Source of the DNA: Oscillospiraceae bacterium
GTDB taxonomy: Bacteria; Bacillota; Clostridia; Oscillospirales; QAMX01
DNA: 6,596 nucleotides
Assembly (NCBI GenBank): GCA_902772625.1
Contig: CACYBP010000226.1
Span: 1-6,596 of the forward strand
Reading direction: 5' to 3'
Shown here: one piece after another, positions 1,223-6,596 of the stretch
Position numbering within the stretch: position 1 is the stretch's first letter
How the letters are laid out: each line of letters begins with the position of its first letter
Position numbers and translations under genes: made by a program
Notes under the pieces: model-generated
Told to the model about the DNA's origin: nothing
The model's input: only the letters and a program-made list of their open reading frames with translations
Database searches by the model: none

Positions 1223-2083
1223 TCAGACCGCTCCTCCGGGCTTTCCGGCGAACCTGATCTTTACGATCTTCATTTTCACGAGGCTGTCGCAGAAGCGGAT
1301 CATCAGCTTGTAAAGAGGTCTGACCTCCCCGTAAATATCCCTGTAGCCGCGCATATAGCTCTTGGCGGTGACCGAGGCAAACCGGTCGCTTACCGCCCGG
1401 AGCTCGCTTTCGTCCTCCAGAGAGAAGAAGGCGTTGACGTCGGTGATCCCGGCCTCCTTCAGCCAGGTCTTCCGCATCAGCTTCGCCCCGCGCCGGTTGC
1501 AGGAGTCGAAGGCGAGCGTCGCCCCGGGGAAACGGTGCGCCATGGCGGAAAAGAGCCGCTTTACCTCTTCGGTCCTGAAATAATAAAAGACGCCGGCGGC
1601 AAAGAACACCGCGCCGTTATCCGGATCGATCCGGTCCATCCAGCCGTGATCGTTCAGATCGAAGGCGATATTCGTCTCCCTTTCCCCGGGAGGCAGAAGC
1701 TCGTTTCGGATCGCGATGACCTCCGGAAGGTCGATGTTGAATCCCCTGGCAAGACCGTTGTCGCATTTCCGGAAGGTGTCGTCCAGCCCGCATCCCAGAT
1801 TGACCACCGCGGCCTTCGGATGCTCCCATAGCACGGCCTCCACTTCTTTTCTGAGGTCGTACTGCCTTTGCGCCACCTCCAGCGCACCGAACAGTCCCGC
1901 CGCCGATTCCATCTTCTTCCTCTTTTCGGCGAAATCGTAATCGAGGGAATCGCAGATCCGCTTCGCCTCGGGATCCGAAAACAGCGCCGGGAACCTTTCG
2001 GAGCACACCAGCCTTCCGAAGAGCGGAATGACCAGGGTCTCTTTGACCGTATTCTTTTCGATGTGGTATTTCACGTTCCGCAC
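1223..2083 (-). CDS. LCM/TcmP-type class I SAM-dependent methyltransferase
   Basis: A 286-residue protein with a class I methyltransferase fold of the leucine carboxyl methyltransferase (PPM1)/TcmP group. Motif I is VVNLGCGLDDTF (residues 93-104), with the family's long DDTF continuation. NIDLPEV (116-122) gives the acidic residue that should hold the SAM ribose (D118). FDLND (141-145) is the likely adenine contact. FFAAGVFYYF (160-169) is the motif-IV strand. Relatives methylate carboxyl or hydroxyl groups on proteins or small molecules; this substrate is unknown. The start is GTG at 2083-2081, preceded by GGAAAGGAAAGAAG. It overlaps the end of the ATPase gene by 13 bp, so the Shine-Dalgarno lies inside the upstream gene and translation is probably coupled. 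It is the last gene of the block and runs into the bidirectional terminator. Family confident; link to metal handling is inferred only from operon position. Confidence 0.88.
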   Translation of the reverse strand: MRNVKYHIEKNTVKETLVIPLFGRLVCSERFPALFSDPEAKRICDSLDYDFAEKRKKMESAAGLFGALEVAQRQYDLRKEVEAVLWEHPKAAVVNLGCGLDDTFRKCDNGLARGFNIDLPEVIAIRNELLPPGERETNIAFDLNDHGWMDRIDPDNGAVFFAAGVFYYFRTEEVKRLFSAMAHRFPGATLAFDSCNRRGAKLMRKTWLKEAGITDVNAFFSLEDESELRAVSDRFASVTAKSYMRGYRDIYGEVRPLYKLMIRFCDSLVKMKIVKIRFAGKPGGAV

Positions 2084-4185
2084 CTTCTTTCCTTTCCGGA
2101 GCCGTCTTCCGGCAAAAGCGGCGCAAGGCAGTCCATGCCGAGAAGCAGTGTGGATCCGTTGTGCAGAAGCGCCGACAGGGCCGGGGACAGCACGCCGAAG
2201 GCGCCCAGAAGAATCAAGGCGCCGTTGAAGCCCATCACGAACCGGTAATTCCGCTCGATCCGCTTCATCAGCCGCCCGGAAAGCGTACGGAGCAGGACCA
2301 GCTCTTCCAGATCCTCCGCGGCGATCGTGACGTCCGCCACCTCGCGCGCGACGCCGGCCCCGCTGCCGACGGCGATCCCCACGTCCGCCAGAGACAGGGC
2401 GGGCGCGTCGTTGATGCCGTCGCCGATCATGACGACGCGGCGGCCTTCCTCTTTCCTTGCGCGGATAAAGGCGGCCTTGTCCTCCGGAAGCACCTCTGCG
2501 CGGAACTCATCCACGCCAAGCTCTTTCGCCACGGCTTCCGCCGTCCGGAGGTTATCTCCGGTGAGCATGCAGATCTTTTCAAAGCCGGCCTCATGCAGAA
2601 GGCCGACGACCTTTTTCGCTTCGGCCCTGAGGGGATCCCGGATGCCGACGGCTGCGGCGAGCGTTCCGCCGACGGCGAGATACAGCCAGGAGTATTCCGG
2701 CTCCAGCGCGTCGAAGGCGGCCCTGTCCTCCGGAAGGATCTCCGCGCCCTCGTCCTCGAAGACGAAGTGGCGGCTTCCGATGACGGCGCGCTCCTTCCCG
2801 ATCCGGGTGGCGATGCCGTGGGCGACCACGTATTCCACCTCGCTGTGCATCTCCCGGTGATCAAGGCCCTGTTCTTCGGCCGCTCTGACCACCGCGTTGG
2901 CCACCGAATGCGGAAAATGCTCCTCCATGCACGCGGCCAGGCGCAGCATCTCTTTTTCGTCCCTTCCCTGAAACGCCGCCACTCTGGCCACCGTCGGGCA
3001 GGCGTTGGTGAGGGTGCCGGTCTTGTCAAAGATGATCACGTCGGCCTTGCTGAGGGTTTCCATGTATTTTCCGCCCTTGACGGTGATCTTGTGTTTTCCC
3101 GCCTCGCGCATGGCGGAAAGGACGCTCAGAGGCATGGAAAGCTTCAGGGCGCAGGAGAAATCCACCATCAGGACCGATACCGCCCGCGCCGCGTTCCCGG
3201 TCAGAAGCCAGGTCAGCGCGCTTCCGCCGAGGCACCAGGGCACCAGCCTGTCGGCCAGGTGATAGGCACGGTTTTCGGTGCCGGATTTCATGCGCTCCGA
3301 ATCCTCGATCATACGCACGATGCGGTCGTAACGGTTTTCCCCGGCGGTATGGGTCACCCGCAGCACGCAGTTCCCCTCCTCCACCACCGAGCCCGCATAA
3401 ACGGCCGCGCCGGGATACTTGGCCACCGGGACCGATTCCCCGGTCAGGGAGGCCTGATTGATCATCACCTCTCCCCGGTCGAGGATCCCGTCCAGTGGCA
3501 GGACGTGCCCGGTGTGGACCACGATCCGGTCCCCGACCTCCACCCTCGAAAGGGGAGTCAGCTCCTCCCTGCCGTCTTCGGCAAGCTTCCAGACCTCGTC
3601 TACCTGCAAAGACATGCTCCTTGCCAGGTCGTCCACCGACTTTTTGTGCGTCCATTCGTCCAGCGTCTCGCCGAGTCCCAGAAGGAAGCTGACCGATCCC
3701 GCGGTGGAAAAGTCCCCGGTCAAAAGCGACGCGCAGAGCGCCGCGCCATCCAGAACGTCCACCGTCAGTTTTCCCTGTCCGAGGGTCTTCAGGGCGAGCC
3801 ACAGGCGTGGAAGGGCGTTCAGCGTGTTGAGGAAGATCCGCGCCGGAAGCGGCAGGAACAGCCGCTTCGCGTAGTGCCCCAGCACCTGAAAAACCATCTT
3901 TTCTTTGTATTCCCGGTTGATCCGGCGGCTCTGCGGGCTGAGAACGCGGACCTCCTCCCGCGCCTTTTCATAGCGGAAGCCCGCCAGGCGCCGGTAAAGC
4001 TCCTTTCTGTCCCCGTGAAAAAAAATGATCACGCCCGAGATCCTTTCGTGAACCGTCACCCGGTCCACGCCCGGAAGACTCAGGATCCAGGCCTCCAGAA
4101 GGTCGGCCTCTTCCATGCTCATGCTGGGTCCCGCGGCGGAAAGGCGCACCCGTCCCCTGCTTTCGTGAAGGATCCGGAACCTCAT
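2071..4185 (-). CDS. fezB: P1B-type heavy-metal P-type ATPase, SCA-motif (P1B-6/FezB-like)
   Basis: A 704-residue ATP-driven metal transporter of the membrane, complete at both ends. In order: an N-terminal HMA-like ferredoxin fold (about 1-70) with no cysteines and an arginine-rich opening (R2, R4, R10, R12, R14); membrane helices around 97-175; the actuator loop with TGES (248-251); paired helices around 312-360 holding DFSCALKLSMP (342-352); the phosphorylation site DKTGTLT (387-393, D387); FPHSVANA (424-431) where zinc and copper pumps have HP; TGDN (542-545); the hinge GDGINDAPAL (588-597); and two C-terminal helices with FNGALILLGAFG and LLHNGSTLLLG. The CPC/CPx/SPC motif is absent and SCA takes its place, which I recall as the mark of P1B-6 ATPases, the group of ferrosome protein FezB, thought to move iron. 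The ATG overlaps the stop of the small upstream gene (ATGA), indicating coupling. P1B ATPase is near certain; the fezB name rests on the motif and neighbour, not on a search. Confidence 0.93.
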   Translation of the reverse strand: MRFRILHESRGRVRLSAAGPSMSMEEADLLEAWILSLPGVDRVTVHERISGVIIFFHGDRKELYRRLAGFRYEKAREEVRVLSPQSRRINREYKEKMVFQVLGHYAKRLFLPLPARIFLNTLNALPRLWLALKTLGQGKLTVDVLDGAALCASLLTGDFSTAGSVSFLLGLGETLDEWTHKKSVDDLARSMSLQVDEVWKLAEDGREELTPLSRVEVGDRIVVHTGHVLPLDGILDRGEVMINQASLTGESVPVAKYPGAAVYAGSVVEEGNCVLRVTHTAGENRYDRIVRMIEDSERMKSGTENRAYHLADRLVPWCLGGSALTWLLTGNAARAVSVLMVDFSCALKLSMPLSVLSAMREAGKHKITVKGGKYMETLSKADVIIFDKTGTLTNACPTVARVAAFQGRDEKEMLRLAACMEEHFPHSVANAVVRAAEEQGLDHREMHSEVEYVVAHGIATRIGKERAVIGSRHFVFEDEGAEILPEDRAAFDALEPEYSWLYLAVGGTLAAAVGIRDPLRAEAKKVVGLLHEAGFEKICMLTGDNLRTAEAVAKELGVDEFRAEVLPEDKAAFIRARKEEGRRVVMIGDGINDAPALSLADVGIAVGSGAGVAREVADVTIAAEDLEELVLLRTLSGRLMKRIERNYRFVMGFNGALILLGAFGVLSPALSALLHNGSTLLLGMDCLAPLLPEDGSGKERRCGT

Positions 4186-4445
4186 GCTTCTTCGCCGTCT
4201 TCGATGAATTTTGCCTTTTCGGCCTCGGATCTCTTTTCATTGATCTCTTTGGCGTCCGCCAGGATATCCGAGCAGCCCTCCTGTACGGCCTCCACCCCGC
4301 GCATCACCTGCTCCTTGCAGCGCAGGACGGCGGCGGTGACGTGAGAATAGACCTTGCGGGCGTCCTTGCTGGACAGCAGTTTGATCCCCGCGGATCCAAA
4401 AAGGGCTCCACCCACAAACAGGGCGATTTTTCCGGTGGTAGTCAT
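4182..4445 (-). CDS. Small single-helix membrane protein, DUF6110-like (FezA-like candidate)
   Basis: An 87-residue protein. Residues 5-25 form one hydrophobic helix with a glycine motif, GGALFGSAG (12-20), of the kind that packs helices together. This is followed by LSSKDARKVYSH (24-35) and a charged, probably helical tail (36-87) with single cysteines C43 and C58 and an acidic end. I recognise the pattern as that of DUF6110-type proteins found next to P-type ATPases in gut Clostridia, from memory. The ATG at 4445-4443 is well supported by AAGGAGG eight bases upstream; the same frame stays open further upstream but only across the neighbouring hydrolase gene. The stop overlaps the ATPase start by ATGA. 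In C. difficile the FezB ATPase is paired with a small membrane protein, FezA, needed for ferrosomes; this gene holds the same position. A role as assembly or membrane partner of the ATPase is inference. Confidence 0.85.
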   Translation of the reverse strand: MTTTGKIALFVGGALFGSAGIKLLSSKDARKVYSHVTAAVLRCKEQVMRGVEAVQEGCSDILADAKEINEKRSEAEKAKFIEDGEEA

Positions 4446-4582: not shown

Positions 4583-5494
4583 TCAGACGCCTTCTTTCAT
4601 CATAGCGACCATCCTGTCCCAGCCCTCCCTGGCCTCTTTGCACACCGGGAACACCGGATAGCAATGGAACATCCCCTCTCCCACGGTCATGCGGTAATCG
4701 ACCTTGTATTTCTTCATGGCCTTCTCGAAGGAAGGGGCGCAGGCGTAAAGGGTCTCGTCGCTTCCGTACATGAAGTCGACGTGAGGCGCGTTCGTGAAAT
4801 CGCCCTTCTGAAGCCAGATCATGTAATCGGGCACGTCTTTCGAGCCGTGCCGCATGATCCCCGCGGCGGTACGCATGTACTTTGCCGGGATCGCTACGTC
4901 GACTCTGTCCAGCTCCTTCATCCGCTCCCATTCCTCCGCGGTCGCCGCGCAGGTCCCCGGAGAGATCGCAAGGATCCTTCCCGGCATCGGAACGTCCGCG
5001 TGTCCGTCGTTGATGTAGGGGACCATGCCCAGAGCCAGATTTCCGCCCGAGGAGGTGCCGAGCACCGAGATATCCTCCGCCCGGTATTCTTCAAGCATCT
5101 TCTTATAGGTTTCGTGCACCATCGCGTAGGCCTTTGTGATGGGGTAATCGGTGCAGAGCGGATAGTAAGGCACGAAGAGATCCAGCCCCGTCTCCCTCGC
5201 GAAGCGAAGGGCTTTTCTGATCGAAGCGGGGCGCGGCGCGCTGATCATCCCGCCGCCGATCAGAAAGAGATTGGCTTTCTTCTTTTTCTCCCGGTGGATC
5301 ATCTTCAGCACCGGAAAGCCCATGACGTCGATCCGGCTGACTTCGATTTCCGGATCCCTGAGCGCCGGGATCCGGTTCCTCGCGTTCCGTCTTCTGCGGT
5401 TTTCCAGAAGCTCCGCGGTGCTCTTCGCGATCCAGCGCTTCTTCAGCCCAGACGCCTTCACCAGCCGTTTCAGGATCTCGTATTTTACCGTCAT
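4583..5494 (-). CDS. Alpha/beta hydrolase, HSL/acetyl-esterase-like
   Basis: A 303-residue serine hydrolase of the alpha/beta fold, closest in layout to the hormone-sensitive-lipase group (acetyl esterases, lipases). The nucleophile elbow is GTSSG (146-150, Ser148), followed by GNLALGM. The acid is probably D246 in MYGSDETLYA, and the base H277 in GMFHCYP, so the triad is complete. The oxyanion motif, normally HGGG, reads IGGG (79-82), lacking the histidine. No signal peptide is seen; the N terminus is basic and the protein is probably cytoplasmic. The ATG at 5494-5492 is preceded by AAAGAGGG with six bases between. It is the first gene after the promoter at 5651-5678 and lies 137 bases before the small membrane protein gene in the same direction, with no clear terminator between. 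Substrate unknown; membership in one operon with the ATPase is likely but not proven. Confidence 0.88.
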   Translation of the reverse strand: MTVKYEILKRLVKASGLKKRWIAKSTAELLENRRRRNARNRIPALRDPEIEVSRIDVMGFPVLKMIHREKKKKANLFLIGGGMISAPRPASIRKALRFARETGLDLFVPYYPLCTDYPITKAYAMVHETYKKMLEEYRAEDISVLGTSSGGNLALGMVPYINDGHADVPMPGRILAISPGTCAATAEEWERMKELDRVDVAIPAKYMRTAAGIMRHGSKDVPDYMIWLQKGDFTNAPHVDFMYGSDETLYACAPSFEKAMKKYKVDYRMTVGEGMFHCYPVFPVCKEAREGWDRMVAMMKEGV

Positions 5495-5519: not shown

Positions 5520-5535
5520 GTTAGCTATAACTAAC
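5520..5535. promoter_or_regulatory. Operator-like palindrome GTTAG-N6-CTAAC (proximal)
   Basis: The 16-base sequence GTTAGCTATAACTAAC is a near-perfect inverted repeat (seven of eight base pairs), 25 bases upstream of the hydrolase start. It shares its outer GTTAG and CTAAC arms and its 16-base length with a second palindrome about 100 bases upstream. It lies near a possible weak second promoter on the minus strand (TTGGCG, 17 bases, TACAGT), whose -10 abuts it. The TTAG/CTAA arms resemble sites of DtxR/IdeR/MntR-type metal-dependent repressors; the regulator is inferred. Confidence 0.6.
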
Positions 5536-5616: not shown

Positions 5617-5648
5617 AAGGGACGGTTAGGCATTCCTAACCGTCCCTT
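5617..5648. promoter_or_regulatory. Long perfect inverted repeat at the transcription start, containing GTTAG-N6-CTAAC
   Basis: A perfect 14-bp inverted repeat, AAGGGACGGTTAGG (5617-5630) and CCTAACCGTCCCTT (5635-5648), with a four-base centre. Its core GTTAGGCATTCCTAAC (5625-5640) matches the proximal palindrome in arm sequence and spacing. It begins two bases downstream of a TATAAT -10 box on the minus strand, so the predicted start (about 5643-5645) lies inside the repeat. Bound by a repressor it would block the promoter; transcribed, it would put a hairpin at the 5' end of the mRNA. No T-run follows on the minus strand (GCGCGCTTTT), and nothing upstream on the plus strand needs ending, so a terminator role is less likely. 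Confidence 0.7.
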
Positions 5649-5650
5649 CT

Positions 5651-5678
5651 ATTATACCGCAAATTCTCCAAAAATCAA
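5651..5678 (-). promoter_or_regulatory. Sigma-70-type promoter of the hydrolase-ATPase block
   Basis: Read on the minus strand: TTGATT (5678-5673, four of six consensus bases), a 16-base spacer, and a perfect TATAAT (5656-5651), in a locally AT-rich stretch of an otherwise GC-rich region. It points at the hydrolase gene, giving a leader of about 150 bases that carries both palindromes. Confidence 0.7.
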
Positions 5679-5987: not shown

Positions 5988-6596
5988 TTATATACCCAGC
6001 AGCTGTTTCCAGCCGGGAAGAAAGAAGGCTTCCACCGTTTCGAGATACCGGTAGGCTTCCTCCTCGGTATAGCCGTGGATCACCGGCTCGAACAGAGCCG
6101 TCGTGTAAGCGCTCAGGAGCAGATGCAGCGCCTTTTCGTCGAGATCGGGAACGCCGTGCCCCTTCTCGCGGAGCACCGGCAGGAATTCCGCAAGCTTCTT
6201 TTGATGTTTCACGGTGAGATCGTGCAGGAAACCGGAATACCCGGTCCCCCCGGATCCGGTGAGAAGGAGCCTGTACTCCTCCATGTGGGGATAGACGATC
6301 TCGCGCATCATGTCGATCTCCGAACCCTTCCAAAGCTCGGCCCCGCCGGTTTCCGGCGCGGCGTCGCTTCGGGACGCACGGGCCTCCAGCCAGGCGTCAA
6401 GCCTCTCGGCCGCCGGCGTCACCAGCTCCCGGAAAAGGTCCTCTTTATTCCGGCAGTGTCTGTAAAGGCCCGCCGCCGTCATCCCGCACCTCTTCCCGAT
6501 CCGGCGCATGGACGCGTTTTCAAACCCGTACGCGGCGAATTCCTCCCGCGCGGCCGCCAGGACCTTCTTATGCGACGTCGTCTTGTCTCTGGGCAC
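5988..6596 (-). CDS. TetR/AcrR-family transcriptional regulator (start at window edge)
   Basis: A 202-residue reading with the TetR DNA-binding domain at residues 9-56: KKVLAAAREEFAAYGFENASMRRIGKRCGMTAAGLYRHCRNKEDLF in outline, with recognition helix around 39-46 (MTAAGLYR) and the typical Y45-R46-H47 and K51-E52-D53-L54-F55 ending. Residues 60-202 form a helical ligand-binding and dimer domain without a recognisable ligand signature. Proteins of this family are usually repressors released by a small molecule. GTG at 6596-6594 gives a normal N terminus, but no upstream sequence is visible, so the true start may lie outside the window. It faces the same way as the hydrolase-ATPase block and has its own terminator, so it is probably a separate transcript. 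Whether it controls the block is unknown. Confidence 0.9.
   Translation of the reverse strand: MPRDKTTSHKKVLAAAREEFAAYGFENASMRRIGKRCGMTAAGLYRHCRNKEDLFRELVTPAAERLDAWLEARASRSDAAPETGGAELWKGSEIDMMREIVYPHMEEYRLLLTGSGGTGYSGFLHDLTVKHQKKLAEFLPVLREKGHGVPDLDEKALHLLLSAYTTALFEPVIHGYTEEEAYRYLETVEAFFLPGWKQLLGI

What the first reader, a model, noticed from the sequence alone, without database searches (positions are those of the whole stretch)
2071..4445. Candidate ferrosome-type (FezA-FezB-like) pair
Seen: an 87-residue glycine-motif membrane protein is translationally coupled (ATGA) to a P1B ATPase that has SCA instead of CPx and no cysteine metal-binding domain. Known, from memory: P1B-6 ATPases carry an SCA motif, and FezB proteins of ferrosomes belong to this group; C. 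difficile pairs FezB with a small membrane protein. Inference: this organism may form iron-storing membrane compartments using a divergent fez cluster that lacks the other known fez genes in this window.
Basis: partly seen in the sequence, partly recalled or inferred. Interest (0 to 1): 0.75.

Follow-up and report, generated by a model that had tools for sequence, protein, structure and literature searches.

The report
Ferrosome-type iron-storage gene pair
An uncultured bacterium carries a two-gene unit, a small membrane protein and a metal-pumping ATPase, that matches a Clostridioides difficile gene pair which is very likely fezAB, the genes reported to build iron-storing compartments, so it would probably store iron in the same way.

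Summary
An 87-aa glycine-motif protein (4182-4445, minus; Pfam DUF6110) overlaps by ATGA a 704-aa P1B-ATPase (2071-4185, minus) with SCA in TM4, HN in TM6 and no cysteine before residue 151. Three of four C. difficile genomes carry the same pair once and the fourth lacks both: ATPase 48% identical over 696 residues, small protein 43% over 79. Their order and published annotation fit CD630_05910/05920, named fezAB in print; that equation is inferred. The window ATPase sits in the C. difficile clade (100/100), apart from the copper, zinc/cadmium and DUF1490-linked pumps compared. DUF6110 is over the cut-off in 43 of 394 genomes of the order but in 0 of 20 others of the family; in loci read, the pair often adjoins AraC regulators and iron-type importers. 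Iron storage is untested, fezX was not identified and no Fur box was found. The main rival is an efflux platform, because DUF6110 is related to mycobacterial PacL. Most interesting: FezA, DUF6110 and PacL look like one family, and FezB-type ATPases share six nucleotide-domain histidines absent as a set from 17 other P1B ATPases compared. New member of a known kind.

The parts
4182..4445 (-). FezA-like small membrane protein, 87 aa, Pfam DUF6110; predicted helices 3-24 and 27-85 (low-confidence model)
2071..4185 (-). FezB-like P1B-ATPase, 704 aa
3148..3156 (-). codons of the SCA motif in TM4 (residues 344-346)
2158..2163 (-). codons of the HN motif in TM6 (residues 675-676)
2767..2919 (-). nucleotide-binding-domain stretch with the six histidines 423, 426, 443, 447, 456, 473
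   Evidence: invariant in 51 of 51 FezB-type ATPases; full set in 3 of 4 Gram-negative rows and 0 of 17 other P1B rows
1223..2083 (-). LCM-type methyltransferase; its start overlaps the ATPase end by 13 nt, so likely the same transcript; link to iron unknown
   Evidence: LCM-type genes near 5 of 43 relatives' loci
4583..5494 (-). alpha/beta hydrolase, likely first gene of the transcript; no homologue of it was found in the relatives' loci scanned
5651..5678 (-). sigma-70-like promoter match, 10 of 12
   Evidence: 3 matches found, 0.9 expected
5625..5640 (.). dyad GTTAG-N6-CTAAC inside a 14-nt perfect inverted repeat (5617-5648); candidate TetR operator
5520..5535 (.). second dyad GTTAG-N6-CTAAC; candidate TetR operator
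5988..6596 (-). TetR-family regulator, candidate regulator of the unit; a third dyad lies just upstream of it on contig C4
1150..1181 (.). terminator-like hairpin between the methyltransferase and the plus-strand gene

Best explanation
The two genes encode family members of a C. difficile pair that is very likely FezA-FezB, and together they are predicted to load iron into membrane-bound stores (ferrosomes). Shown here: the pair, its motifs, its place in the C. difficile ATPase clade, and a frequent association in relatives with iron-type importers and regulators. Inferred: FezA inserts by its glycine-motif helix and, through its long C-terminal helix, gathers FezB into a membrane patch that becomes a vesicle. 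FezB would then pump ferrous iron from the cytosol into the lumen through a site around Asp342, Ser344, Cys345 and His675-Asn676, where it would precipitate with phosphate. The N-domain histidines may sense or hand over cytosolic iron in place of the missing cysteine domain. In this genome the unit is likely transcribed with a hydrolase and a methyltransferase and controlled by the neighbouring TetR protein.
For: C. difficile homologues: ATPase 48% identical over 696 residues, small protein 43% over 79, E 1e-20; one such pair in 3 of 4 genomes, both genes missing in the fourth. Published tags fit: fezAB = CD630_05910-05920 (PMC11651100, passage), listed as 'ATPase' and 'hypothetical protein' in an iron/Fur study (PMC6311696, table passage). 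FezA and FezB are required for ferrosomes (review PMC12574912, passage). Trees. Shared invariant TM4, TM6 and N-domain residues. Iron-type neighbours in 29 of 43 loci of the order against 1 of 20 control stretches; FecCD operon; iron-dependent-repressor family gene, rubrerythrin and FeoA; YbtP/YbtQ-like ABC pair in the one locus compared. The assembly's only ferritin-superfamily match is a rubrerythrin.
Against: No granule, iron or transport data. The equation of the C. difficile pair with fezAB was not checked by locus tag. No Fur box in the window at up to 3 mismatches, and the window's own neighbours are not iron genes. fezX not identified. The ATPase passes the NCBIfam cadmium-family cut-off (359.2 against 313.5), as does the C. 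difficile one (346.3). DUF6110 is related to PacL, whose pump exports zinc. None of 20 other genomes of the family has DUF6110. The context seeds came partly from the loci counted, and AraC is not iron-specific.
Confidence: 0.7

Rival explanations
1. A PacL-like efflux platform: the small protein stabilises the ATPase in plasma-membrane foci and the pump exports surplus iron or another divalent metal from the cell, with no compartment formed.
For: PMC9374683 (passages) relates DUF6110 to PacL and suggests platforms for P1B6 ATPases; PMC13043812 (passage) calls DUF6110 PacL-like. My profile comparison of DUF6110 with DUF1490 gives 82% probability, E 1e-5. The DUF1490-linked ATPases share His423, His426, His447 and HN.
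Against: The window ATPase groups with C. difficile and not with DUF1490-linked CPC ATPases. The window's small protein ends in KFIEDGEEA, without the His/Asp metal-binding tail described for PacL1. Neighbours in relatives are importers and regulators, not metal-resistance genes, in the loci read.
Confidence: 0.22
2. An ordinary zinc, cadmium or copper exporter with a changed TM4 motif and an incidental small neighbour.
For: It passes the NCBIfam cadmium-family cut-off (359.2 against 313.5).
Against: It branches apart from CopA, SilP, ZntA and CadA with 100/100 support for the FezB-type group (100/99). Asp342, Ser344, Cys345, Lys348 and HN are invariant in 51 of 51. The small neighbour recurs in 50 of 54 loci. 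No cysteine before residue 151.
Confidence: 0.05

Closest known systems
C. difficile FezA-FezB (ferrosome; CD630_05920/05910, equation inferred)
   Same: Small DUF6110 protein encoded directly before an SCA/HN P1B-ATPase; 43% and 48% identity; same clade 100/100
   Different: C. difficile FezA is longer (131 aa) and lacks Cys43/Cys58 of the window subfamily; reported Fur control against a candidate TetR dyad here; fezX not identified in the window
PacL1-CtpC of mycobacteria and other DUF1490-linked ATPases
   Same: Small one-helix membrane protein plus P1B-ATPase with HN in TM6; weak profile similarity DUF6110-DUF1490
   Different: CPC in TM4, His/Asp tail on PacL, separate branch
Gram-negative SCA-group ATPases with a YtxH-like small protein (Azospirillum, Arcobacter plasmids) and their kin (Vibrio, Cereibacter plasmids)
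   Same: Sister branch, 99/97; SCA and the six histidines in 3 of 4; YtxH-like protein weakly similar to DUF6110, 81.5%; iron ABC transporter, FeoA or TonB receptors near some
   Different: Longer clusters with HMA2 and hypothetical genes where annotated; their equation with the published fez clusters was not tested

Membership tests
FezA-FezB ferrosome pair | ATPase in the same clade as the C. difficile SCA ATPase, apart from named Cu and Zn/Cd pumps | tested here: met
FezA-FezB ferrosome pair | small membrane protein of the same family encoded directly upstream | tested here: met
FezA-FezB ferrosome pair | Fur control | tested here: inconclusive
   no Fur box at up to 3 mismatches in the window, but the same scan was at chance level in two C. 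difficile loci, so it has little power; the genome has one Fur-family match
FezA-FezB ferrosome pair | fezX in the operon (name fezXAB, PMC11533511) | not tested
   no sequence of fezX was available
FezA-FezB ferrosome pair | iron-rich membrane-bound granules that need both genes | not testable with these tools
   needs microscopy
PacL (DUF1490)-CtpC efflux platform | DUF1490 protein with C-terminal His/Asp metal-binding motif | tested here: not met
   Pfam gives only DUF6110; C-terminus KFIEDGEEA
PacL (DUF1490)-CtpC efflux platform | CPC in TM4 and branching with DUF1490-linked ATPases | tested here: not met
CopA or ZntA/CadA exporters | CPx in TM4, cysteine metal-binding domain, branching with the named exporters | tested here: not met
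   against this, the cadmium-family model passes its cut-off

The most novel reading that the evidence does not exclude
FezA, DUF6110 and PacL are one family of membrane scaffolds, so ferrosomes and metal-efflux platforms are two outcomes of a single scaffold-plus-P1B-ATPase module. Which outcome results is set by the pump, whose iron-storing form carries a six-histidine iron gate in its nucleotide-binding domain. Uncultured anaerobes of this order would then widely bank the iron brought in by YbtPQ-like importers in such stores.
Probability: 0.4. Interest if true: 0.75.

Novelty: new member of a known kind. Interest (0 to 1): 0.5.

Why it matters
In Gram-positive bacteria ferrosomes are described from C. 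difficile; this places the same kind of pair in part of an order of mostly uncultured anaerobes and gives sequence markers for finding it. It also joins two lines of work that in the library searched do not use each other's terms: ferrosomes, and PacL/DUF6110 membrane platforms. That makes a testable prediction about how small glycine-motif proteins shape membrane around metal pumps.

Tried and rejected
Considered and rejected: a copper, zinc or cadmium pump (trees); contamination by this contig; a DtxR/IdeR reading of the dyads (spacing does not fit the consensus as I recall it). Weak or empty: no solved-structure match for the small protein at E<=1; its structure model is low in confidence (mean pLDDT 61.0, pTM 0.27), so no fold search was run; one viral-contig scan gave one 33% relative; the Fur-box scan in two C. 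difficile loci was at chance level (7 found, 6.3 expected; 9 found, 5.3 expected). The first tetranucleotide comparison was spoiled by contigs reading as N and was repeated with 14 of 20. My regular expression for HN matched 14 of 51 while the alignment shows HN in 51 of 51; the expression was too strict. The adjacency expression gave 35 of 39 loci, three of them repeats of one another; the misses were L009 and L012 (one place, the lone DUF6110) and L010 and L014, whose ATPases one search shows (L010) and one search shows (L014 as L049). L016 (22.6 bits, below cut-off) was dropped. The Fur-family match was scanned in the wrong orientation (no family), so it is not resolved into Fur, PerR or Zur.
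Full report
What is there. The window is the whole of contig C226 of a 2.08 Mb assembly that is 86% complete. On the minus strand, in order of transcription, lie a TetR regulator (6596-5988), an alpha/beta hydrolase (5494-4583), an 87-aa protein (4445-4182), a 704-aa P-type ATPase (4185-2071) and an LCM-type methyltransferase (2083-1223). A separate 358-aa gene without a Pfam match runs on the plus strand (21-1097). The small protein and the ATPase overlap by ATGA, and the methyltransferase start overlaps the ATPase end by 13 nt. The contig fits the assembly: GC 0.607, tetranucleotide correlation 0.980 against 14 usable contigs of 20, and an exact 87-base end overlap with contig C4.

What the small protein is. 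It is a clear member of Pfam DUF6110. Two held papers mention that family, and 'ferrosome' occurs in neither. PMC9374683 (passages) says DUF6110 proteins are related to DUF1490/PacL and are typically encoded with P1B6 ATPases; PMC13043812 (passage) calls them PacL-like. My profile comparison gives DUF6110 against DUF1490 82% probability (E 1e-5, 47 columns), DUF6110 against the YtxH-like small protein of Gram-negative clusters 81.5%, and DUF1490 against that protein 0.2%. These similarities are moderate, not decisive. A model of the window protein shows two helices, 3-24 and 27-85, at low confidence.

The link to ferrosomes. Four genomes named C. difficile were reached through a housekeeping primer pattern. 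Three carry one ATPase 47-48% identical to the window's over nearly its full length, while the next P1B ATPases match at about 32%. The same three carry one DUF6110 protein directly upstream, and the fourth genome has neither. PMC11651100 (passage) names fezAB as CD630_05910-05920, and PMC6311696 (table passage) lists these tags as 'ATPase' and 'hypothetical protein' in an iron and Fur study. This fits the order found, so the C. difficile pair is very likely fezAB. That step is inferred: no locus tags were available, and the two primary ferrosome papers are not held. That FezA and FezB are required for ferrosomes is taken from a review passage (PMC12574912). Another passage calls the operon fezXAB (PMC11533511); I did not identify fezX.

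Phylogeny. In a tree of 29 ATPases and a second of 34, the window falls with C. difficile and other DUF6110-linked ATPases: in the second, 100/100 for the close group of 9 and 100/99 for all 13 DUF6110-linked rows, next to four Gram-negative rows (99/97), with DUF1490-linked CPC ATPases, CopA, SilP, ZntA and CadA outside. Six rows of the first tree were dropped from the second as near-copies or long branches (C. difficile 452_842, 451_797, 452_SCA and KdpB, the second Deinococcus row, the E. faecium row). The tool warned of long branches (KdpB, Mycolicibacterium TPC and E. faecium in the first; Mycolicibacterium and Bosea in the second) and of uneven composition. No named cobalt or manganese pump was included, and CtpC is represented only by DUF1490-linked ATPases.

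A signature. In 51 FezB-type ATPases, chosen as hits above 450 bits to the window ATPase, Asp342, Ser344, Cys345, Lys348, His675 and Asn676 are invariant, and so are six histidines of the nucleotide-binding domain: 423, 426, 443, 447, 456, 473. The full six occur in 3 of 4 Gram-negative rows (Cereibacter lacks two, and SCA) and in 0 of 17 other P1B rows. Parts are shared more widely: His426 is present in all 17, and the DUF1490-linked rows also have His423, His447 and HN. I did not search the literature for this. That these histidines bind iron is a guess.

Distribution and context. DUF6110 is over the cut-off in 6 of 398 genomes sampled from the phylum and in 43 of 394 from the order (45 at E<=0.001), but in none of the 20 other genomes of the window's family. 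One search lists 51 places: the window, 43 that I read in wider context (40 newly fetched, 3 before) and 7 that I did not fetch. An AraC regulator lies within 500 nt upstream on the same strand in 27 of 43. An iron-type seed hit (strong AraC, iron-dependent repressor, FecCD, FeoA or exporter-fold ABC) is present in 29 of 43 against 1 of 20 control stretches. Some seeds were taken from loci among those counted, AraC and exporter-fold ABC are not iron-specific, and related genera are not independent, so this is association, not proof. For one locus (L153) the two ABC halves were compared with solved structures: among bacterial half-transporters listed the best were YbtP (319 bits) and YbtQ (299 bits), above IrtA/IrtB, MsbA or Sav1866, while full-length eukaryotic ABCB chains scored higher overall. 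One pair (L044) adjoins FecCD permeases with an SstD-like binding protein, below that model's own cut-off. Another (L047) is preceded by an iron-dependent-repressor family gene, closest to MntR, and has rubrerythrin and FeoA near by.

Regulation in the window. No Fur box was found at up to 3 mismatches, but the same scan was at chance level in two C. difficile loci, so it has little power. Two perfect GTTAG-N6-CTAAC dyads lie between the TetR gene and the hydrolase (0.02 expected), one just after a promoter-like match. The genome has six such sites against none for the reversed control; one lies just upstream of the TetR start on the adjoining contig. The simplest reading is an autoregulated TetR unit that includes the pair. 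The genome has one Fur-family match, and its only ferritin-superfamily match is a rubrerythrin, but about 14% of the genome may be missing.

Mechanism and odds. The best-supported account is a ferrosome-type store: a scaffold protein gathers an iron-pumping P1B-ATPase in membrane that becomes a vesicle. Membership of the C. difficile pair's family I hold at about 0.93; that this bacterium forms iron stores with it at about 0.7. The main rival is a PacL-like efflux platform. Microscopy with elemental mapping would decide.

Novelty. The pair is a new member of a known kind. Less expected are the bridge between ferrosome FezA and PacL-type scaffolds, which I found in no held paper (searches; the primary ferrosome papers are not held), and the N-domain histidine signature.

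Noticed in passing
window 4317-4319 and 4272-4274 (Cys43 and Cys58 codons of the small protein): The window's FezA subfamily has two invariant cysteines in 40 of 40 aligned sequences (window plus 39 of its 120 listed homologues), absent from C. difficile FezA.
   Followed up: no
window 1223-2083; L045, L125, L149, L160, L161: LCM-type methyltransferases lie near the pair or a lone DUF6110 in 5 of 43 loci of the order; role unknown.
   Followed up: partly
L059, L060 (MT836292, MT835525): Two unverified 'Bacteriophage sp.' contigs from human feces carry the whole pair; probably bacterial DNA in virus-like-particle assemblies.
   Followed up: partly
L040:450-8161, L041:1167-6377: Large P-loop, GTPase-like genes (831-1736 aa) lie beside the C. 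difficile pair on the other strand; only weak Pfam matches.
   Followed up: partly
L105 (contig C162) 3036-3126 and 3293-3308: A 91-bp stretch 97% identical to part of the window's methyltransferase gene lies near another GTTAG-N6-CTAAC dyad.
   Followed up: no
L054 (Mycolicibacterium aubagnense plasmid): A P1B-ATPase with TPC in TM4 is followed by a ferritin-family gene and a VIT-family gene: another possibly iron-linked pump.
   Followed up: no
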